From Bacteroidaceae bacterium (GTDB taxonomy: Bacteria; Bacteroidota; Bacteroidia; Bacteroidales; Bacteroidaceae), in assembly GCA_017645305.1 (NCBI GenBank), contig JAGCPD010000009.1, positions 84,007-148,006 on the forward strand: DNA of 64,000 nucleotides, read 5' to 3'. Positions 55,330 to 64,000 of the stretch are shown here, piece by piece. Numbering within the stretch: position 1 is the first letter of the stretch; the number at the start of each line of letters is the position of its first letter. Made by a program: the position numbers and the translations under genes. A model generated the notes under the pieces. The model did no database searches and was not told where the DNA came from. It saw only the letters and a program-made list of their open reading frames with translations.

Positions 55330-55456
55330 ATTTTTTTTGCCCTTTTTTACCCCTGATTTTTGCTCATTTTTGGTACTGAAACAGGGGAAAAAGCCCCAAA
55401 TCATGCACTCTTTTGTAATTTTTGTTGAAAAAATGTGAAAGATTTAAAAATTTTTA

Positions 55457-55464
55457 TATCTTTG
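55457..55464 (+). promoter_or_regulatory. -7 element of the LytTR locus
   Basis: TATCTTTG, 37 bases before the ATG at 55501. No good TTTG 19-20 bases upstream, which would suit an activator-dependent promoter. It lies 128 bases after the last 22-bp repeat. Confidence 0.65.
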
Positions 55465-55500
55465 CACTTGACTCTGGAAAAAGATTCAAAAAAGACTATT

Positions 55501-55872
55501 ATGGAATACCTGTTTTTAAACTCTCGCGACGAATTGCTTCGCATAGACATTTCCCGCATCGTGTATTTCGAGGCAGACGGAAACTACACGAACATCTATT
55601 TGTGCAACAAGTTGAAAGGGACAGTCTGCATGAACCTTGCCCGTATGCAGGAGGCACTCACTGCACAGCTAAAGGAAAAGGCTACCCGCTTTGCCCGTAT
55701 CGGCAAAAGCTATATCGTCAACCTCAATTATGTCTATTCCATCCAGTTACTTAAGCAACGTCTGGTCTTGAGCGACCAGGCCACCTTTGCCTTCCAGATA
55801 GCCGTTTCTAAAGAGGCACTGAAGACATTGCGTGAATTATATCTTAATAACGGCAAACAGAAACATAAATAA
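55501..55872 (+). CDS. Stand-alone LytTR DNA-binding regulator
   Basis: A 123-residue protein consisting of a LytTR domain only: 'MEYLFLNSRDELLRIDISRIVYFEADGNYTNIYL', then 'LARIGKSY'-type strand 'RFARIGKSYIVNLNYVYSI' and 'QIAVSKEALKTLREL'. There is no receiver domain, so it is not a classical phospho-regulated LytR/AlgR protein. An in-frame start at 55435 lies upstream of the promoter -7 element and is rejected. Likely controls its own locus through the 22-bp repeat array (inference). The FHA gene follows after 14 bases. Confidence 0.92.
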   Translation: MEYLFLNSRDELLRIDISRIVYFEADGNYTNIYLCNKLKGTVCMNLARMQEALTAQLKEKATRFARIGKSYIVNLNYVYSIQLLKQRLVLSDQATFAFQIAVSKEALKTLRELYLNNGKQKHK

Positions 55873-55886
55873 ATAATAATATAGGA

Positions 55887-56591
55887 ATGATAGAAGCTAT
55901 AATAGGACGCCAGCACGGTACCAATTGCTTACTAATGGTAATTGGGGGGCAGGGCTATGCCCTCAGTGGTAACGGAACAGTGCCGAAAACAGTAAGCAGT
56001 TCGCATTGCAAATTGACTGTCGATGACAATGGGACATGGAAGCTTTCCAACATCAAGGCCGAGCTTGACACCTTTGTTGATGGATTGCAGATTGACACCA
56101 AACGGGTATCTCCCAGCAGTCGCGTGGAATTGGGAGCAAACCACTTTGTCCTGAACATGCACAAAGTGGAATCAGTCATAAGACAACTGCAACCAGCGGT
56201 CTTCTCTCTCCGCCCGTTAGAACAGATTTGGAAGAACTACGACGATGAGAAGCTCCAGATGCAGAATAAAGAAATGAAGATAGCCAATTTCCAGCGCCTT
56301 CAGGGAGCACTCAGTATGTCTGCCATGCTTTTCGGCTTTATTCCACAGTTGGGAGTCTTCCGCTGGGTTATTATGGGATTGGCTCTGCTGATTGCCATTT
56401 TCTTCTTTGTTCGCGGAAGCATGGTGTCCAACTCCCTTCCCATGAAACTGAAGAAACTGAATGATAAATTTGAGGCAGAATACCTCTGTCCCAACCCTCA
56501 GTGCCCCCGTTTCTTGGGCTATAGACCATACAATCAGCTCCAGTATGACAGGGGCTGTCCACTCTGTCAATGCAGGTACACAAACACCTAA
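55887..56591 (+). CDS. FHA-domain membrane protein with zinc-ribbon-like C-terminus
   Basis: 234 residues. The N-terminal ~95 residues form an FHA-like domain: 'IGRQHGTNCLLM', 'VSSSHCKLTVDDNGTWKLSNI' with the SxxH motif, and 'DTFVDGLQID' at the last loop. FHA domains bind phosphothreonine. Two hydrophobic segments follow (about 145-180), then a cytoplasmic tail with Cys pairs 'CPNPQCPRF' and 'CPLCQCRY', like a small zinc ribbon. With two to three Ser/Thr kinases in the locus, it is a probable phospho-reader (inference). Confidence 0.85.
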   Translation: MIEAIIGRQHGTNCLLMVIGGQGYALSGNGTVPKTVSSSHCKLTVDDNGTWKLSNIKAELDTFVDGLQIDTKRVSPSSRVELGANHFVLNMHKVESVIRQLQPAVFSLRPLEQIWKNYDDEKLQMQNKEMKIANFQRLQGALSMSAMLFGFIPQLGVFRWVIMGLALLIAIFFFVRGSMVSNSLPMKLKKLNDKFEAEYLCPNPQCPRFLGYRPYNQLQYDRGCPLCQCRYTNT

Positions 56592-56745
56592 AACAGGCAC
56601 TTATCCTTCAAACGCCATATTTCATACATTAAACAACAGTACTTATCCAGTATGCTTTGCAGGATTTGCGTGGTTCGGAAAGAAGTCAGACCTTTGCAGT
56701 GCAATTCAGCAAAAAAACGAGTACTAACAAAAAACAAAAAAAGTC

Positions 56746-57474
56746 ATGAAAACTGAAAACATGAATCAAGTAGAGAGTTTGAACCAGAGTGTCAATCCCT
56801 CAGAAGAGAAGAATGAAAAGTATGGAAAGGCACGCGAAGCCGCAGTCGGCACTATGGGTGGCGTTGTTGGTGGTGCAGCAGGTGCTGCAATTGGCAGTGT
56901 CATTGCGCAGGAAGCCGGTGCGAAGGAACCTGTTGAAGAACCTGTGAATCCTGTGGTTGATCCTGACCCAGTTCCTGTGAAGCCCGAGCCTGCTCGGCAC
57001 CAACCGGAAAGACCCGTTACACCAGAGGAGCCAGAAAAGCCGGAAGAGCCCGTTAAGCCGGATGAGCCTGTTAAGCCAGAAGGACCCGATACACCAGATG
57101 AGCCTGTTACGCCGGAAGGACCCGATACGCCGGATGAGCCTGTTACGCCGGAAGGACCCGAGGTTCAGGTTCTCGGATACGAAGCTATTCAGACTGAGGA
57201 TGGTGGCACGATGCAGTTAGCTGCTGTCAGTGTTAACGGTGAGGTTGTACAATTGGCCGAGGTAACAGGCGACGATATTGTTGATTTCGCTGGTATGGAT
57301 GTTAACCAAGACGGGAAAATCTCAGAGAATGAGATTCTCGATGTCTCAAACGAGGGTATATCCATGCAGGCACTCCACAATGCCTATCAGGAAACTCAGA
57401 GTACCGCCCAGAATACCGACATCGGTGAGCCGGACTATATCAACGACGGTAATGTGGATGATTATATGGCTTAA
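56746..57474 (+). CDS. Glycine-zipper, Pro/Glu-repeat and EF-hand-like protein
   Basis: 242 residues. A charged N-terminus, then a glycine zipper 'GTMGGVVGGAAGAAIGSVIA' (about 38-57) that may insert in a membrane or oligomerise. Next is a PEKPEEPVKPDEP-type repeat (about 85-145) with two 36-base DNA repeats at 57074-57145. The C-terminal ~95 residues include one EF-hand loop 'DVNQDGKISENE' that could bind Ca2+. No signal peptide. Not a family I can name; it is encoded between the FHA and LRR genes and is probably co-transcribed. Confidence 0.78.
   Translation: MKTENMNQVESLNQSVNPSEEKNEKYGKAREAAVGTMGGVVGGAAGAAIGSVIAQEAGAKEPVEEPVNPVVDPDPVPVKPEPARHQPERPVTPEEPEKPEEPVKPDEPVKPEGPDTPDEPVTPEGPDTPDEPVTPEGPEVQVLGYEAIQTEDGGTMQLAAVSVNGEVVQLAEVTGDDIVDFAGMDVNQDGKISENEILDVSNEGISMQALHNAYQETQSTAQNTDIGEPDYINDGNVDDYMA
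57074..57145 (+). repeat. Two 36-bp coding repeats
   Basis: Two 36-base units encoding PEGPDTPDEPVT differ at only a few third positions. They are part of a longer decayed PEEPxKP series and are likely unstable in copy number. Confidence 0.75.
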
Positions 57475-57495
57475 CATAATTCTGAAAGGTAAGTT

Positions 57496-58572
57496 ATGAA
57501 ACGCTATATCATTTCCTCTGTCATGGCTACCCTGATGGGAGCCATGACAGCCACAGCCCACGATTTCAGTGCTACATTTGGCGGACAGAGAATCTATTTC
57601 AATATTACCGATACACTCCAGAAGACCGTAGAGATAACCTATAAAGGCAGTATCACAGCCCATGCTGCGCCCGAGGTGAAGGGTTCTCTGGCCATACCTG
57701 TCACCGTGCACCATCTCAATCAGGTGTTCACCGTCGCATCCATCGGTGCCAAGGCATTCGCCGGTGCATCCGGCCTTACGGACGTTGTCATACCTTCGTC
57801 CATCCGGCAGATTGGCGACTTTGCCTTCGAACGGTGTACTGCCCTCCGCAGTATTGTATTTCCCGGTTCAAAGCCTGCGATGGGGCAGGGAATCTTCTTC
57901 CTGTGCAAAAGCCTGCAGAATATCTCACTGGGTAGCGACTGGACGGAGATTAACTTCAGTATGTTCCGTTGGAGCGACAGCCTTCAGACGGTGACCGTTC
58001 CCTCCCGGCTGACACGCATTCAGGGGCTGAAGACACTACGTTCGCTCACCACCATTCAGGTGGATGCCAACAACCCGTCCTATTCTGCCATTGACGGTGT
58101 ACTTTACAACAAGCAGCAGACCCGTCTGCTCTGTGTGCCGCGTGCCGCCAAGGGTGCTTTGGTTGTTCCCGAGGGTGTAACAGAGGTAATGTGGGGTTCC
58201 CTTATTGACTGCCCCGCCATCACCGCTGTCGATTTCCCTGCATCGCTTACCGTTCTTTCTTTCCGCGAACTGAGCCGTATGCCTCTTCTCAAATCCATCA
58301 CCCTGCGCGGAGAACGTGTGCTTGCCACTGCCAGCCTGAACGGATGTGACACCACTCTCTTTGTGGTCAGTAGTCCGGATGTGCAGCTGCTGGTTCCCAA
58401 GAAAATGCAGAAAGCTTACAGCAAGGCCCTCGGCCTGTCAGAGGCGGAGTTTACCGAGATTGCCGCACATAAGCCGCAGGGCTATGCCGAGGCAACGGCT
58501 TCCGTACCTTATTTCATACGTAAGGAGCAGATGATTAAAGAGAAAAACATCAGACAGATTTCCACCAAATAA
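57496..58572 (+). CDS. Secreted BspA-type leucine-rich repeat protein
   Basis: 358 residues with a signal peptide (MKRYIISSVMATLMGAMTATA). LRR_5/BspA repeats from about 65 to 290: 'IGAKAFAGASGLTDVVIPSSIRQIGDFAFERCTALRSIVFPG', 'LRSLTTIQVDANNPSYSAIDGVLYNKQQTRLLCVPRA', and others. BspA-type LRRs mediate binding to proteins or surfaces. No sorting tail, and the C-terminus is basic ('KEKNIRQISTK'). It is in the run of genes from LytTR to the first kinase. Confidence 0.9.
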   Translation: MKRYIISSVMATLMGAMTATAHDFSATFGGQRIYFNITDTLQKTVEITYKGSITAHAAPEVKGSLAIPVTVHHLNQVFTVASIGAKAFAGASGLTDVVIPSSIRQIGDFAFERCTALRSIVFPGSKPAMGQGIFFLCKSLQNISLGSDWTEINFSMFRWSDSLQTVTVPSRLTRIQGLKTLRSLTTIQVDANNPSYSAIDGVLYNKQQTRLLCVPRAAKGALVVPEGVTEVMWGSLIDCPAITAVDFPASLTVLSFRELSRMPLLKSITLRGERVLATASLNGCDTTLFVVSSPDVQLLVPKKMQKAYSKALGLSEAEFTEIAAHKPQGYAEATASVPYFIRKEQMIKEKNIRQISTK

Positions 58573-59006: not shown

Positions 59007-59039
59007 ATATATAATATAATAATGTATAGCAGGCGCATC

Positions 59040-60503
59040 ATGTTATCACAATCACTGAAAGAAGGCAGCCTCCTTCAGGAAGGCAAATACAGAATCGAAC
59101 GTAGCTTGGGGCAGGGAGGCTTCGGCATCACCTATCTGGCCATTCAGGACATTCTGGATCGCAAGGTGGCAATTAAGGAATTCTTTTTCCGCGACTATTG
59201 CGAACGTGACGGAGATACGTCGCACGTCACCTTGGGCACACAGTCTAACAAGGAAACCGTAGAACGTTTCCTCGGCAAGTTCATCAAGGAGGCACGTACC
59301 ATCTCCAAGCTGCATCACCCCGCCATTATCTCCATCTATGACATCTTCCGCGAGAACGGAACGGCCTATTATGTGATGGAGTACATAGAGGGGGAGTCTC
59401 TTGGCGATATGGTGAAGCGGCGTGGTGCCCTGCCACAGGCCGAGGCCCTGTCCTATATCCGCAGCGTAGGCGATGCGCTCACCTACATCCACCAGCGCAA
59501 CATCAACCACCTGGATGTGAAGCCCAGCAACATCATGCTGCGCCGTATGGATAACCAGATTGTGCTCATAGACTTTGGCGTTGCCAAGCAGTACGACGAG
59601 CAGACCAAGGAGGGAACCACCACCACTCCCGTGGGTATCAGTCACGGCTATTCACCTGCCGAGCAATACAAGAAGAACGGGGTACAGACATTCTCGCCCC
59701 AGTCTGATGTCTATGCCCTGGCTGCCACGCTGTTCAAGCTGCTCACGGGACAGACACCTCCTGAAGCCACGGAGATTCCAGATGTGGGCTTGCCCGTCGA
59801 GGAACTCAGACAGAAAGGTGTTTCGGAGTCTGTTATCAGCGCTATTGAGAATGCTATGAAGCCCCGCAGAAGTCGTACGCAGAGCGTGGCAGAATTCATT
59901 GCCAATCTGGATAAAGTGAAGGATGATACCAACGATGGGGACGACGACGTGACAGACGTGATAGGTTTTGAAGAGCCGAAACCTGCTCCAACTCCCAAAC
60001 CGAAACCCACTCCAATTCCCAAGCCCCAACCTGCTCCAACTCCAAAGCCGAAGTCTGGAAACTTATGGATTTATGCAGCAGTCATCGTGGGTCTGGTGTT
60101 GGGCGTACTCTTGTGGCAGAAGCCATGGGAACATAATACCGGTGAACAGCATGAAGAGAAGGTTATCACGGAAGTCTCTAATAAGTCCCTCCGTATTCCG
60201 CTGGGTCAGTGCACCTATACCGGTGAAGTGGATTCTCTGGGTGTTCCCCATGGTGAGGGCGAAGCACGCTTCACGGACGGCCGTACATATAAGGGCACCT
60301 TTGTTCATGGCGTTGCAGAGGGAGAGAAGTCTCTCTTTGTATATGAGAACGGTGATACATACGAAGGCTCGTTCCGTAAGAATGGCTTCAATATGGGACG
60401 CTATACCATCAAGGAGGACGGAAGCTACTTTATAGGAACCTTCAAAGACGGCAATCCCAACCAAGGCAGTTGGTATGATAAGTCAGGTAAAAAAATTGAG
60501 TAA
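59040..60503 (+). CDS. Transmembrane Ser/Thr protein kinase with MORN repeats
   Basis: ~487 residues. An apparently active kinase (1-280): glycine loop 'LGQGGFG', K46 in 'VAIKEFF', 'HLDVKPSN' with D159, 'LIDFGVAK', and 'SPAEQY'. Then a PKPxP linker, one membrane segment ('LWIYAAVIVGLVLGVLLW'), and an extracytoplasmic C-terminus with about three MORN repeats ('GEARFTDGRTYKGTFVHG', 'YENGDTYEGSFRKNG'). An ATG at 59022 is also in frame, but 59040 aligns with the starts of the sister kinases. Confidence 0.92.
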   Translation: MLSQSLKEGSLLQEGKYRIERSLGQGGFGITYLAIQDILDRKVAIKEFFFRDYCERDGDTSHVTLGTQSNKETVERFLGKFIKEARTISKLHHPAIISIYDIFRENGTAYYVMEYIEGESLGDMVKRRGALPQAEALSYIRSVGDALTYIHQRNINHLDVKPSNIMLRRMDNQIVLIDFGVAKQYDEQTKEGTTTTPVGISHGYSPAEQYKKNGVQTFSPQSDVYALAATLFKLLTGQTPPEATEIPDVGLPVEELRQKGVSESVISAIENAMKPRRSRTQSVAEFIANLDKVKDDTNDGDDDVTDVIGFEEPKPAPTPKPKPTPIPKPQPAPTPKPKSGNLWIYAAVIVGLVLGVLLWQKPWEHNTGEQHEEKVITEVSNKSLRIPLGQCTYTGEVDSLGVPHGEGEARFTDGRTYKGTFVHGVAEGEKSLFVYENGDTYEGSFRKNGFNMGRYTIKEDGSYFIGTFKDGNPNQGSWYDKSGKKIE

Positions 60504-60596: not shown

Positions 60597-61457
60597 ATGA
60601 AAGCGAAACTATATTATTTTCTTCTTCTCCTTATTATGGCATGTCTGCCCCAACTTGTCTTTGCACAGGCCAGTGGCGGTGCCATAAAGAGACCGGTCAA
60701 GAAACCAACCACCACCACCGCTCCTGCAAAACCGAATAAACCAACTCCCAAACCCACGATAACTACTAATTCTGACTATTCGCAGACGATTAGTTTCAAG
60801 GGTGTTTCGTTTAAGATGATAAGAGTTGACGGCGGCATCTTCACTATGGGAGCTACTTCGGAGCAGGGCTATGATGCCTACAGCGATGAGAAGCCCACAC
60901 ATCAGGTAACGCTATCTACTTATTACATAGGTGAGACTGAGGTGACCCAGGCATTATGGGAGGCCGTGATGGGCAGCAACCCCAGTTATTTCAAAGGTGC
61001 AAACCGTCCCGTAGAGAACGTCGGCTGGAACGAATGCCAGACGTTCATCAGCAAGTTGAACTCCATTACAGGTAAGAAATTCCGCCTGCCCAAGGAAAAG
61101 GAGTGGGAGTATGCCGCCAAGGGTGGCAGCAGGAGCCACGGTTATGAGTATAGCGGAAGCAATGAGATCAATGATGTGGCTTGGTATGATAGTAATGCTT
61201 GTGATGGTGTAGGCTCAAATAGCCCTGACTATGGAACACACAATGTAAAGACCAAGAAGCCGAATGAACTTGGTATCTACGACATGAGCGGGAACGTGTA
61301 TGAGTGGTGTGAGGATTTGTACGACTCTTCGGGCTCTTACCGCGTTCGCCGTGGTGGCAGCTGGGACTACGGCGCCAGGGGCTGCCGTGTGTCTAACCGG
61401 GACAGCAGCACGCCTGTCTACCGGAGCTACTTCCTTGGGCTGCGCCTTGCCCTATAG
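60597..61457 (+). CDS. Secreted SUMF1/FGE-fold protein with DGR-type variable C-terminus (copy 1)
   Basis: 286 residues. Signal peptide (MKAKLYYFLLLLIMACLPQLVFA), a Pro/Lys/Thr linker (to about 60), then a formylglycine-generating-enzyme-type fold: 'GGIFTMGATSE', 'IGETEVTQALWEAVMG', 'NRPVENVGWNECQTFI', 'RLPKEKEWEYAAKGG', 'NELGIYDMSGNVYEWCED', 'RRGGSWDYGARGCRVSNRD' and 'GLRLAL'. This C-type-lectin-like fold is a common target of diversity-generating retroelements. Codons 61338-61436 form the variable region. The FGE catalytic Cys pair was not identified, so a binding role is likelier than sulfatase maturation. Confidence 0.9.
   Translation: MKAKLYYFLLLLIMACLPQLVFAQASGGAIKRPVKKPTTTTAPAKPNKPTPKPTITTNSDYSQTISFKGVSFKMIRVDGGIFTMGATSEQGYDAYSDEKPTHQVTLSTYYIGETEVTQALWEAVMGSNPSYFKGANRPVENVGWNECQTFISKLNSITGKKFRLPKEKEWEYAAKGGSRSHGYEYSGSNEINDVAWYDSNACDGVGSNSPDYGTHNVKTKKPNELGIYDMSGNVYEWCEDLYDSSGSYRVRRGGSWDYGARGCRVSNRDSSTPVYRSYFLGLRLAL
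61338..61436 (+). other. Putative DGR variable region 1
   Basis: 33 codons. Aligned without gaps to 63656-63754 there are 29 differing bases, while the 6 codons before and 7 codons after are identical. Changes fall at first (16) and second (11) codon positions, with 2 at the third, and nearly all variable codons are NNC. That is what adenine-to-any-base change of AAC codons in a template would give. Confidence 0.85.
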
Positions 61458-61580
61458 CTCATTATGTTAAATAGTACAGGCATTTCCGATTGAAGAAACA
61501 TCAGTATAATCAACATAAAAACAATGCAATCACTTGAGTCCGGCAGTCTCTTGCAAGGAGGCAAATACAGAATAGAAAGG
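61437..61580 (+). repeat. Direct repeat spanning SUMF1 stop and kinase start (copy 1)
   Basis: Nearly identical to 63755-63898: the last SUMF1 codons, the 66-base spacer and the first ~19 kinase codons, with only a few base changes. It shows that the SUMF1-kinase cassette was duplicated. Confidence 0.9.
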
Positions 61581-62882
61581 GTCTTAGGCCAAGGCGGCTT
61601 CGGTATCACATACAGTGCCGTTCAGGTGGCTTTGAACCGTCGGGTAGCCATCAAGGAGTTCTTCATGAAAGAATACTGCGAGCGTGATGCAAACACCTCA
61701 CATGTCACTGTGGGAACCTCCGGCGGAGCACAGGAGGTAAAGCGCTTCAAGGAGAAGTTCCTGAAAGAGGCCTCCTTGATAGCTCAGTTTGATAATCCTC
61801 ATATTGTCCGCATCCATGACATCTTTGAAGAGAACGGCACAGCCTATTATGTGATGGAGTTCCTGGAAGACCGATGGAATGAGTTCGCAAAGGACCGCAC
61901 ATCTTTGGAACAATCCCTGAACATTATCCGTCAGGTGGGTGAAGGGCTGAGCTATATTCATGCCCAGAATGTGCTGCATCTGGATGTGAAGCCCGGCAAC
62001 ATCATGTTCCGCAAGGACTGTTCCGTGCTCATAGACTTCGGCATCAGCAAGCGTTACGATAGCGAGGGCGGACAGACCAGTACTACACCCGTTGGCATCA
62101 GTAAGGGATTTGCGCCTTTGGAGCAATACAATCAGGGCGTTCAGAAGTTCCAGCCTGCAACGGATGTCTATTCATTAGGGGCAACACTCTATAAACTGCT
62201 GACAGGAGAGACACCGCCCGAGGCATCGGATGTGATGAACTATGGCCTTCCCACAGACGTTTTGCAGGCCAGGCATGTTCCCGAGAGGATTATCTCTGCC
62301 ATCCAGAAAAGCATGGAGCCAAGAGTGGGGCAGCGATACCAAAGTGTGGAGGAATTCCTTGAAGCTATTGATAGCTTTATATATACAGTTGCATGGACAA
62401 AGAATACCGTACAGGAGAACCTAAGAAGAAACAAAGATGAAGAGACCTTTGTTTATGAATTAAATCCTGGAGCAGATAATAATGAAAGTAAATCTGAGGA
62501 TAACAAAAAGAAGGGAGAAAAATTTTTAGAAGACAATAAAATGAAAGAAGGTGTATTTGTCTTGCCAAGTGGCGTACAATATAAAATTATAACACAAGGT
62601 TCAGGACAAAAACCTTCAAAAGAATCTATAGTCACAGTAAATTTTGAATCCAAACTTATTGACGGAACAGTCCTTCAAAGTAGCTTTACTCTTAACGAAC
62701 CAGTAACTTTCCGTTGTAATGACGTAATTGAAGGATGGAAAGAAGCATTAACCCACATGCCTGTTGGTTCCACATGGGAAGTCTATATACCACAAGAACT
62801 TGCATATGGAGACAGGGTGTATAAAAATATAAAACCATTCTCAATGTTAATTATTAAAACAGAATTGATTGGCGTAAATTAA
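61524..62882 (+). CDS. Ser/Thr protein kinase fused to an FKBP-type prolyl isomerase
   Basis: 452 residues, no membrane segment. Kinase domain (1-280): 'LGQGGFG', K44 in 'VAIKEFF', 'HLDVKPGN' with D154, 'LIDFGISK', 'APLEQY'. After a charged linker (about 295-330) comes 'KKGEKFLEDNKMKEGVFVLP', like the FKBP/FklB N-terminal helix, and an FKBP core: 'SGVQYKIITQGSGQKP', 'VTVNFESKLIDGTVLQSS', 'GWKEALTHMPVGSTWEVYIP' and 'LAYGD'. Base composition turns A/T rich from about 62385, unlike the kinase part. The sister kinase at 59040 has MORN repeats instead, so the C-terminal module has been exchanged. Confidence 0.92.
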   Translation: MQSLESGSLLQGGKYRIERVLGQGGFGITYSAVQVALNRRVAIKEFFMKEYCERDANTSHVTVGTSGGAQEVKRFKEKFLKEASLIAQFDNPHIVRIHDIFEENGTAYYVMEFLEDRWNEFAKDRTSLEQSLNIIRQVGEGLSYIHAQNVLHLDVKPGNIMFRKDCSVLIDFGISKRYDSEGGQTSTTPVGISKGFAPLEQYNQGVQKFQPATDVYSLGATLYKLLTGETPPEASDVMNYGLPTDVLQARHVPERIISAIQKSMEPRVGQRYQSVEEFLEAIDSFIYTVAWTKNTVQENLRRNKDEETFVYELNPGADNNESKSEDNKKKGEKFLEDNKMKEGVFVLPSGVQYKIITQGSGQKPSKESIVTVNFESKLIDGTVLQSSFTLNEPVTFRCNDVIEGWKEALTHMPVGSTWEVYIPQELAYGDRVYKNIKPFSMLIIKTELIGVN

Positions 62883-62928
62883 ATTGATATTTTCTCTTTC
62901 TTCAAGCAATAGAATATAGAATTGTCCA

Positions 62929-62936
62929 TACCTTTG
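62929..62936 (+). promoter_or_regulatory. -7 element of the second SUMF1-kinase cassette
   Basis: TACCTTTG, 29 bases before the ATG at 62966; no -33 TTTG. It suggests the second cassette can be expressed separately from the first. Confidence 0.6.
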
Positions 62937-62965
62937 CACCAGCAAACAAAAATTCATAGATTATC

Positions 62966-63775
62966 ATGAAAGCGAAACTATATTATTTTCTTCTTCTCCT
63001 TATTATGGCATGTCTGCCACTGTCTTCGTACGCCCAGGCCAGTGGCGGTGCAATAAAGAGACCGGTCAAGAAGCCAACCACTACCGCTCCTGCTAAGCCG
63101 GCAAGAACGGCACAACCTGCAAAACCAAGCAGGCCAACAGTCAATAACACCCCCGTCTCCTACCAGACCATCACCACCAATGGCGTATCTTTTAAGATGA
63201 TTCGTATAGAGGGACAAGGAACCCCGTTCTATATTGGTGAAACAGAGGTAACCCAGGCACTATGGGAGGCCGTTATGGGCAGCAACCCCAGCCGTTTCAA
63301 AGGTGCGAACCGTCCTGTAGAACAAGTGAGTTGGAATGATTGTAAAGAGTTTATTAGCCGCTTGAACTCCATTACAGGTAAGAAATTCCGCCTGCCCAAG
63401 GAAAAGGAGTGGGAGTATGCCGCCAAGGGTGGCAGCAGGAGCCACGGTTATGAGTATAGCGGAAGCAATGAGATCAATGATGTGGCTTGGTATGACAAGA
63501 ATGCCTGTTATTGCGGCTCCAGCAATCAAAATTCCAATCATCCTGACTATGGAACACACAATGTAAAGACCAAGAAGCCGAATGAACTTGGTATCTACGA
63601 CATGAGCGGGAACGTGCATGAGTGGTGTGAAGATTTGTACGACTCTTCGGGCTCTGGCCGCGTGTACCGTGGTGGCGGCTGGGACGACTTCGCCAGGTGC
63701 TGCCGTGTGTCGTACCGGTACTACTTCTCGCCTGACCTCTGGTTCAGCAACCATGGGCTGCGCCTTGCCCTATAG
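62966..63775 (+). CDS. Secreted SUMF1/FGE-fold protein with DGR-type variable C-terminus (copy 2)
   Basis: 269 residues, paralogue of the 60597 gene with near-identical signal peptide and a longer Pro/Ala/Lys linker. The first FGE strand segment with GxFxMG is missing: 'KMIRIEGQGTPF' runs straight into 'YIGETEVTQ', so about 25 residues are lost. The middle is otherwise close to copy 1 ('RLPKEKEWEYAAKGGSRSHGYEYSG' region nearly unchanged). The C-terminus 'YRGGGWDDFARCCRVSYRYYFSP' differs strongly from copy 1 only inside the variable region. Followed after 66 bases by the next kinase. Confidence 0.9.
   Translation: MKAKLYYFLLLLIMACLPLSSYAQASGGAIKRPVKKPTTTAPAKPARTAQPAKPSRPTVNNTPVSYQTITTNGVSFKMIRIEGQGTPFYIGETEVTQALWEAVMGSNPSRFKGANRPVEQVSWNDCKEFISRLNSITGKKFRLPKEKEWEYAAKGGSRSHGYEYSGSNEINDVAWYDKNACYCGSSNQNSNHPDYGTHNVKTKKPNELGIYDMSGNVHEWCEDLYDSSGSGRVYRGGGWDDFARCCRVSYRYYFSPDLWFSNHGLRLAL
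63656..63754 (+). other. Putative DGR variable region 2
   Basis: Counterpart of 61338-61436, same length, no gaps. Variable codons here include GGC, TAC, GAC, TTC, TGC, CTC, AGC and AAC at aligned sites, all reachable from AAC by changing only its adenines. TCG at codon 31 (ACG in copy 1) and TGG (CGG) also fit changes of a template A. Confidence 0.85.
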
Positions 63776-63898
63776 CTCATTATGTTAAATAGTACAGGCA
63801 TTTCCGATTGAAGAAACATCAGTATAATCAATATAAAAACAATGCAATCACTTGTGTCCGGCAGTCTCTTGCAAGGAGGCAAATACAGAATAGAACGG
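63755..63898 (+). repeat. Direct repeat spanning SUMF1 stop and kinase start (copy 2)
   Basis: Second copy of 61437-61580; see that entry. Confidence 0.9.
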
Positions 63899-64000
63899 GT
63901 CTTAGGCCAGGGTAGTTTCGGTATCACCTATCTTGCTACAACCAAATTGACAATGATGGGTGAACTCGGCAGGATGGAAACAACGGTAAATGTTGCCATC
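63842..64000 (+). CDS. Ser/Thr protein kinase, N-terminal part (runs off the window)
   Basis: 53 codons are visible. It begins MQSLVSGSLLQGGKYRIERVLGQGSFG, almost the same as the kinase at 61524, and reaches 'VNVAI' just before the expected Lys. After 'ITYLA' it has a longer beta2-beta3 loop ('TTKLTMMGELGRMETT') than its sisters. The C-terminal module is unknown. It confirms the order SUMF1 then kinase for a second cassette. Confidence 0.88.
   Translation, partial: MQSLVSGSLLQGGKYRIERVLGQGSFGITYLATTKLTMMGELGRMETTVNVAI

What the first reader, a model, noticed from the sequence alone, without database searches (positions are those of the whole stretch)
61338..63754. Two DGR-type variable regions in paired SUMF1-fold proteins
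Seen: the two SUMF1 genes align without gaps over their last 46 codons. Codons 1-6 and 40-46 are identical, but codons 7-39 (61338-61436 and 63656-63754) hold 29 differing bases: 16 first, 11 second and 2 third codon positions. Normal divergence or relaxed selection would favour third positions. Variable codons are nearly all NNC (TAC, GGC, CGC, GAC, TTC, AGC, TGC, CTC, GTC, AAC), as if made from AAC codons mutated only at adenines. Known: adenine-specific mutagenic retrohoming by diversity-generating retroelements acts on C-type-lectin/FGE folds at exactly this C-terminal place. No reverse transcriptase, Avd or template repeat is in the window.
Basis: partly seen in the sequence, partly recalled or inferred. 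Interest (0 to 1): 0.95.

Follow-up and report, generated by a model that had tools for sequence, protein, structure and literature searches.

The report
Orphan retroelement-rewritten lectin-fold gene tails
Two neighbouring bacterial genes for lectin-fold (SUMF1-type) proteins are almost identical just before a 33-codon tail whose differences fall mostly where a template repeat of related bacteria has an adenine, so the tails were likely rewritten by a diversity-generating retroelement, for which no template was found in the assembled genome.

Summary
The DGR reading is supported. Four other genomes of the genus carry SUMF1-type template repeats (TRs); two of them carry complete cassettes (target, HRDC gene, reverse transcriptase, TR) whose adjacent target differs from its TR at 17 of 36 and 11 of 30 adenines and at 0 of 75 and 0 of 81 other bases. 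G020's TR has A at 25 of 29 window differences and 7 of 88 identical positions (p=3e-15); 0 of 171 pairs of conserved SUMF1 tails look like this. In the window's genome (90% complete; its contig ends inside the array) no such TR was found, and the one reverse transcriptase found sits beside another protein. The regions are best filed as remote or orphan DGR targets, as described in Treponema denticola, not as a complete DGR. A new detail: the four TRs carry AGCTC at the stop codon, five targets in the same genomes AGTTY, suggestive of IMH*/IMH; both window genes carry the TR form and may be locked.

The parts
59022..60503 (+). Ser/Thr protein kinase 1 (Pkinase domain; C-terminal transmembrane-like and MORN-like repeats, by eye), upstream of VP1
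   Evidence: Pfam PF00069 E 9e-42
60597..61457 (+). VP1: SUMF1/FGE-fold target protein, 286 aa, signal-peptide-like N-terminus (by eye)
   Evidence: Pfam PF03781 E 1.3e-40; best solved relative T. denticola variable protein 1, 2y3c, E 3.2e-33
61332..61460 (+). TR-homologous unit around VR1: starts GGCTCT, ends TAG CTC
   Evidence: Alignment to the G020 and G027 templates; identity stops at about these borders
61338..61436 (+). Variable region VR1 (33 codons)
61456..61460 (+). Post-stop element AGCTC (the form of the four templates; 17 of 30 stop-ending genus tails have AGTTY)
61524..62882 (+). Ser/Thr protein kinase 2 fused to an FKBP prolyl isomerase domain
   Evidence: Pfam PF00069 E 2.5e-35, PF00254 E 5.9e-19
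62966..63775 (+). VP2: SUMF1/FGE-fold target protein, 269 aa, signal-peptide-like N-terminus (by eye)
   Evidence: Pfam PF03781 E 5.9e-32; AlphaFold model (mean pLDDT 73) matches 2y3c first, TM 0.51; the VR itself has pLDDT under 50
63650..63778 (+). TR-homologous unit around VR2: starts GGCTCT, ends TAG CTC
63656..63754 (+). Variable region VR2 (33 codons)
63774..63778 (+). Post-stop element AGCTC
63842..64000 (+). Start of a third kinase-like gene (first 24 residues nearly the same as kinase 2), cut off by the end of the contig (window end = contig end)
   Evidence: translation; contig length

Best explanation
The two SUMF1 genes carry C-terminal variable regions that were likely written by mutagenic retrohoming of a diversity-generating retroelement of the SUMF1-target/HRDC/reverse-transcriptase/template class. 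Shown: the tails differ mainly at positions where relatives' templates have adenine, with silent sites kept; complete cassettes of this class exist in two other genomes of the genus, and adenine-biased TR/VR pairs in four. Inferred: a reverse transcriptase copied a template RNA, misread its adenines, and the cDNA replaced the 3' ends of these remote targets; each target is exported and presents a variable ligand-binding face, and the kinase encoded next to it may be its signalling partner. No template or cognate cassette was found in the assembly: either it was lost (leaving frozen tails, slightly favoured) or it lies in the missing ~10%, perhaps beyond the contig end.
For: 29 differences, 16/11/2, in an otherwise homogenised stretch. 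G020's TR has A at 25 of 29 differing and 7 of 88 identical positions, p=2.9e-15; the G027, G109 and G017 TRs give 25, 22 and 24 of 29. Within-genome A versus non-A mismatches over 111 bases: G027 adjacent target 17/36 v 0/75, G109 11/30 v 0/81, G020 (VR on another contig) 21/32 v 2/79, G017 22/36 v 4/75. Cassettes: G027 SUMF1 target, HRDC (PF00570 E 6.2e-7), RT, TR; G109 the same order (its HRDC-like gene by similarity to that of G027, E 9e-28). The G027 RT falls in phrog_1423; both RTs have IGNLTSQ and YMDD (that IGxxxSQ marks DGR RTs is recalled). Empirical null: 0 of 171 conserved-tail pairs, and 1 of 213 pairs with 20-39 differences among 76 tails of loci L041-L121 (two loci of one MAG), reach A>=0.80 with third positions <=0.15. 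Nearest solved structure is T. denticola variable protein 1.
Against: No TR in the own genome by two patterns and BLASTN (BLASTN with the G020 template did not even return the two VRs, so that call alone is weak); no cognate RT and no HRDC accessory (one RecQ-sized hit, E 9e-4). 4 of 29 differences are at non-A bases of the G020 TR. TR20 also differs from each window VR at 11 of 79 non-A bases, 10 of 11 (VR1) and 8 of 11 (VR2) at third positions (species divergence assumed). A foreign-template test alone is unspecific: 16 of 20 conserved, non-hypervariable tails also pass at p<1e-3. Two remote G027 VRs are less clean (23/36 v 7/75; 13/36 v 9/75). Both window VRs carry the TR-type AGCTC. No strain or read data were available.
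Confidence: 0.85

Rival explanations
1. The tails were imported or shuffled by homologous recombination among many SUMF1 paralogues, with no DGR acting in this lineage.
For: Flanks are homogenised (1 and 2 differences in 45 and 38 codons) and database proteins P0001/P0002 carry the two tails swapped between bodies, so tails do exchange or are mis-assembled.
Against: Recombination among ordinary diverged tails would bring silent differences; only 2 of 29 are third-position, and 25 of 29 coincide with adenines of an independent template. Conserved-tail pairs show 63% third-position differences. It could still move tails that a DGR wrote earlier.
Confidence: 0.08
2. Diversifying selection on ordinary point mutations in a ligand-binding loop.
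For: Differences are mostly non-synonymous (18 of 20 codons) and lie at the C-terminus of a lectin-fold domain.
Against: 9 codons differ at both first and second base while third bases stay C; selection does not target adenines of a template repeat in other genomes; cassettes whose adjacent target has 0 non-A mismatches exist.
Confidence: 0.03
3. The genome's one reverse transcriptase found (contig C13, beside a different variable-type protein) diversifies the SUMF1 tails in trans.
For: It falls in the same RT family (phrog_1423 E 7.5e-94), matches BPP-1 brt and has IGNLTSQ; relatives of it, such as that of G063 (60% identity), carry adenine-specific TR/VR pairs.
Against: No TR was found near it, nor a SUMF1-type TR elsewhere in the assembly; it is distant from the SUMF1-class RT of G027 (32% identity over residues 18-151).
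Confidence: 0.04

Closest known systems
Treponema denticola TvpA DGR (PMC4891356, passages seen)
   Same: FGE/SUMF1-fold targets, HRDC accessory gene, several remote targets, and isolates that hold targets but neither RT nor TR, called likely leftovers by the authors; T. denticola variable protein 1 (2y3c) is the closest solved structure.
   Different: Different phylum; the window's targets alternate with Ser/Thr kinase genes, share homogenised flanks, and carry a TR-type post-stop element.
Cyanobacterial DGRs with kinase-fused remote variable proteins (PMC7517822, passages seen)
   Same: Remote C-type-lectin variable proteins linked to Ser/Thr kinases.
   Different: There kinase and lectin domains are often fused in one protein; here they are neighbouring genes and the targets look exported (by eye).
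Thiohalocapsa PB-PSB1 DGRs (PMC10907252, passages seen)
   Same: Several targets, incomplete loci, and diversification in trans inferred from perfect non-adenine matches.
   Different: There templates and RTs are in the genome and population data show activity; here neither is available.
Prosthecochloris aestuarii plasmid pPAES01 cassette (NC_011061)
   Same: FGE target, HRDC and RT genes in a row.
   Different: Also has avd and a second FGE gene; sits on a plasmid typed as conjugative. Its TR/VR was not examined.

Membership tests
Complete diversity-generating retroelement | Template repeat matching the variable region except at adenines, in the same genome | tested here: not met
   None found in the 90%-complete assembly; present in four other genomes of the genus
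Complete diversity-generating retroelement | Cognate DGR reverse transcriptase | tested here: inconclusive
   One RT found, of the DGR-like family but at another locus without a detectable TR; contig ends inside the array
Complete diversity-generating retroelement | Accessory gene (Avd or HRDC) | tested here: inconclusive
   HRDC accessory: only a RecQ-sized hit in G000; Avd not searched
Complete diversity-generating retroelement | Mutagenic retrohoming activity | not testable with these tools
   Needs strains, reads or an assay
Remote/orphan DGR target gene of the SUMF1 (TvpA) type | C-type-lectin/FGE-fold protein | tested here: met
   PF03781; 2y3c best in sequence and fold search
Remote/orphan DGR target gene of the SUMF1 (TvpA) type | Variable region at the extreme 3' end, bordered by TR homology | tested here: met
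   Repeat borders GGCTCT...TAGCTC against relatives' templates
Remote/orphan DGR target gene of the SUMF1 (TvpA) type | Variation confined to positions where the template has adenine | tested here: inconclusive
   25 of 29 differing sites are A in a relative's template; the species' own template is unknown
Remote/orphan DGR target gene of the SUMF1 (TvpA) type | IMH-like element at the 3' border in its target form | tested here: inconclusive
   Window has AGCTC, the form of the four templates; 17 of 30 stop-ending genus tails have AGTTY. That these are IMH/IMH* is my inference, and one base may not decide
Complete SUMF1-HRDC-RT-TR cassettes of relatives G027 and G109 | Target, accessory, RT and adjacent TR with adenine-only mismatches | tested here: met

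The most novel reading that the evidence does not exclude
In this genus, kinase-SUMF1 gene arrays are standing repertoires of lectin-fold sensors that itinerant DGR cassettes (phage- or plasmid-borne) rewrite in trans and then decay, leaving orphan tails that keep shuffling between paralogue bodies; a single T/C base just after the stop codon (AGTTC versus AGCTC) marks a tail as rewritable or locked.
Probability: 0.2. Interest if true: 0.75.

Novelty: new member of a known kind. Interest (0 to 1): 0.5.

Why it matters
A large metagenomic DGR survey states that its approach misses DGRs acting on remote targets (PMC8144416, passage). Here a probably rumen/gut Bacteroidales genus (inferred from named relatives) shows adenine-specific SUMF1 tails in genomes where no RT was found (G020 and G017), accessory-gene remnants beside several targets, and a candidate 3' recognition element. 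That gives a concrete, testable case of how cell-encoded DGRs are gained and lost, and of whether orphan variable proteins keep a job after the mutator is gone.

Tried and rejected
Foreign-template Fisher test as a census tool: 34 of 55 genus tails pass at p<1e-3, but so do 16 of 20 conserved tails, so it was dropped as evidence of DGR origin; the pairwise-difference null replaced it. A stem-loop after the variable region, described for BPP-1, is not consistent here: 5 of 33 sequences (templates included) have a perfect stem of 6 or more within 70 bases against 2.9 expected from shuffles, and the window has none; folding 12 such stretches gave z-scores from -2.0 to 1.6. A TR/VR scan of 120 of the first 121 loci (all but L001) found no SUMF1-type template: the hits at L027, L041, L046, L063, L087, L089 and L118 were printed (nine of them) and are ordinary or simple repeats. 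An RT search by phmmer with the C13 RT in those 121 loci (E<=1e-4) found only that RT itself; a more distant RT could be missed. TR for the C13 RT: none found. G059 has a decayed half-template beside another variable-type gene. The homologue search scored 7999 candidates, 5625 passed, 120 were listed. The 55-tail set came from selected loci of 28 genomes, not from all 54 with a match; tails that do not fit the fixed-length pattern were left out. The comparison tails of loci L041-L121 are from named genomes and one viral contig; some may belong to the same genus, which the tools do not tell.
Full report
WHAT IS THERE. The window is the last 64 kb of contig C35 of a 3.47-Mb, 90%-complete assembly; the contig ends exactly at the window's end. 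Its last 5 kb hold an alternating array: kinase 1 (59022-60503), SUMF1-fold protein VP1 (60597-61457), kinase 2 with an FKBP domain (61524-62882), VP2 (62966-63775), and the start of a third kinase-like gene cut off by the contig end. Upstream are LytTR, FHA and leucine-rich-repeat genes.

THE OBSERVATION. One search confirms 29 differing bases (16/11/2) in 33 codons with identical borders. One search gives the within-gene control: an older diverged part of the two genes (45 codons) has 32 differences with the ordinary third-position bias (7/4/21); a later stretch of 45 codons has 1 difference, one of 38 codons has 2, then the variable region has 29, then the last 6 codons 0. (A short stretch of unequal length between the 45- and the 38-codon stretch was not compared.) The tails thus stayed or became different inside a homogenised stretch.

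THE TEMPLATE IN RELATIVES. A pattern predicted from the window (AAC at the variable codons) hit 3 of 139 genomes of the genus (G020, G027, G017); reading beside the RT of G109 showed a fourth template, and BLASTN with the G020 template returned these four plus a decayed half-template in G059. G027 and G109 each carry a co-directional cassette: SUMF1 target, HRDC-type protein, reverse transcriptase, template. A viral contig of IMG/VR (L211) has the same gene order and a similar template, and a Prosthecochloris plasmid has FGE, HRDC, avd and RT genes in a row. Mismatches at adenines versus other bases over 111 bases: G027 adjacent target 17/36 v 0/75; G027 remote targets 23/36 v 7/75 and 13/36 v 9/75; G109 11/30 v 0/81; G020, target on another contig, 21/32 v 2/79; G017 22/36 v 4/75.

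LINKING THE WINDOW. At the 29 sites where the two window tails differ, the G020 template has A at 25; at the 88 identical sites, at 7 (p=2.9e-15). The identical bases equal that template at 75 of 88. The four exceptions are two third positions and two others. Template homology starts at GGCTCT and ends at TAGCTC in both genes. As a null, pairs of conserved SUMF1 tails (19 sequences, 171 pairs) were scored the same way: none approaches the window's 86% at template adenines and 7% third positions. Among all 76 comparison tails of loci L041-L121, 1 of 213 pairs with 20-39 differences does (none of 13 pairs with 10-19 and of 1153 with 40-59); both its loci come from one Lentimicrobiaceae MAG. Among 55 genus tails 5 of 144 pairs with 20-39 differences do, the window pair included.

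RESULTS AGAINST. A single tail compared with a foreign template is not diagnostic, because conserved SUMF1 tails pass too (16 of 20 at p<1e-3). In the own assembly no SUMF1-type template was found, and one RT, on contig C13, of a DGR-like family but beside a different variable-type protein and without a detectable template. Relatives of that RT do have adenine-specific repeats.

ORPHANS AND DECAY. RVT_1 was sought in 25 of the 54 genomes with SUMF1 matches: in 14 of 25 none was found, including G020 and G017, which keep a template. Fragments similar to the HRDC accessory lie just downstream of SUMF1 targets in G011 (E 3e-34, open), G020, G017, G106 and G022 (E 4e-6 to 1e-4, three of these four with stops), with no RT reported beside them (positions compared). 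The template of G017 follows what reads like the end of an RT gene (by eye). This resembles the T. denticola isolates with targets but no RT or TR. All these assemblies are incomplete, so absence is not proof. The window's targets are followed by kinase genes, and no HRDC fragment was reported there.

A POST-STOP ELEMENT. All four templates carry AGCTC at the stop codon (one base shifted in G017); the targets that end there in the same genomes (G020 1, G027 2 of 3, G109 1, G017 1) carry AGTTC or AGTTT. Of 30 genus tails with a stop at that place (25 others run on and were set aside) 17 have AGTTY, against 1 of 30 (46 set aside) of loci L041-L121 (p=8e-6); related sequences inflate this number. 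In BPP-1 the target's IMH is nearly identical to the template's IMH* (PMC12875486, passages). I infer the same roles here. Both window genes have AGCTC, the template form, as does one target of G088. That would make them poor recipients; it conflicts somewhat with the recent look of the variation, and I cannot resolve this. A BPP-1-like stem-loop is not consistently present.

HOW IT LIKELY WORKS. Inferred: template RNA, error-prone cDNA, replacement of the 3' end of several remote SUMF1 genes; the proteins, exported judging by their N-termini (by eye), present a variable surface like the T. denticola protein (2y3c is the best match; the model's variable loop is low-confidence) and may signal through the adjacent kinases. 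Kinase relatives were seen in 9 of 141 other loci examined, many of them too short to show neighbours.

NOVELTY. Remote FGE targets, HRDC cassettes, orphan targets and kinase-linked lectin targets are all in print (passages seen). Searches for DGR with Prevotella, FGE, kinase or HRDC terms listed 10, 5 and 5 papers, none of whose titles or abstract starts describes this array; no search was run for the post-stop element; subscription papers and preprints were not searched. Hence a new member of a known kind, with the orphan pattern and the AGTTY/AGCTC element as the parts I did not meet in the passages seen.

Noticed in passing
P0001, P0002 (database proteins; longest contigs 105,338 and 117,835 bases): Same two bodies as VP2 and VP1 but with the two tails exchanged, including a Y/H codon 13 codons upstream of the variable region: recombination or repeat-induced mis-assembly.
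   Followed up: partly
L001:1288-3717 (G000 contig C13): A second, different DGR-like locus: a variable-type protein (FISUMP-like by recall; no Pfam match) 54 bases before a DGR-family RT, without a detectable template repeat; the relative in G063 keeps one.
   Followed up: partly
L122-L153 and L174-L210 (mostly RT loci of the genus): TR/VR pairs with 0 non-A mismatches in 60 bases at many other RT loci, of several target types: the genus seems rich in DGRs.
   Followed up: no
L041 and L042 (Lentimicrobiaceae MAG SIG106): Two SUMF1 tails of one MAG with an adenine-site difference profile like the window's (22 differences, 82% at G020-TR adenines).
   Followed up: no
L211:4589-8250 (IMG/VR contig IMGVR_UViG_3300042402_007908): Viral contig with an Ig-SUMF1 target, HRDC, RT and template in a row; the template resembles that of the genus and differs from its VR only at adenines over 60 bases.
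   Followed up: partly
window 55435-58572: LytTR regulator, FHA protein and BspA-type leucine-rich-repeat protein upstream of the kinase-SUMF1 array, suggesting a phospho-signalling island.
   Followed up: partly
P0031, P0079 and others: SUMF1 relatives fused to TIR domains (PF01582/PF13676) with similar tails, recalling TIR and lectin DGR targets in print.
   Followed up: no
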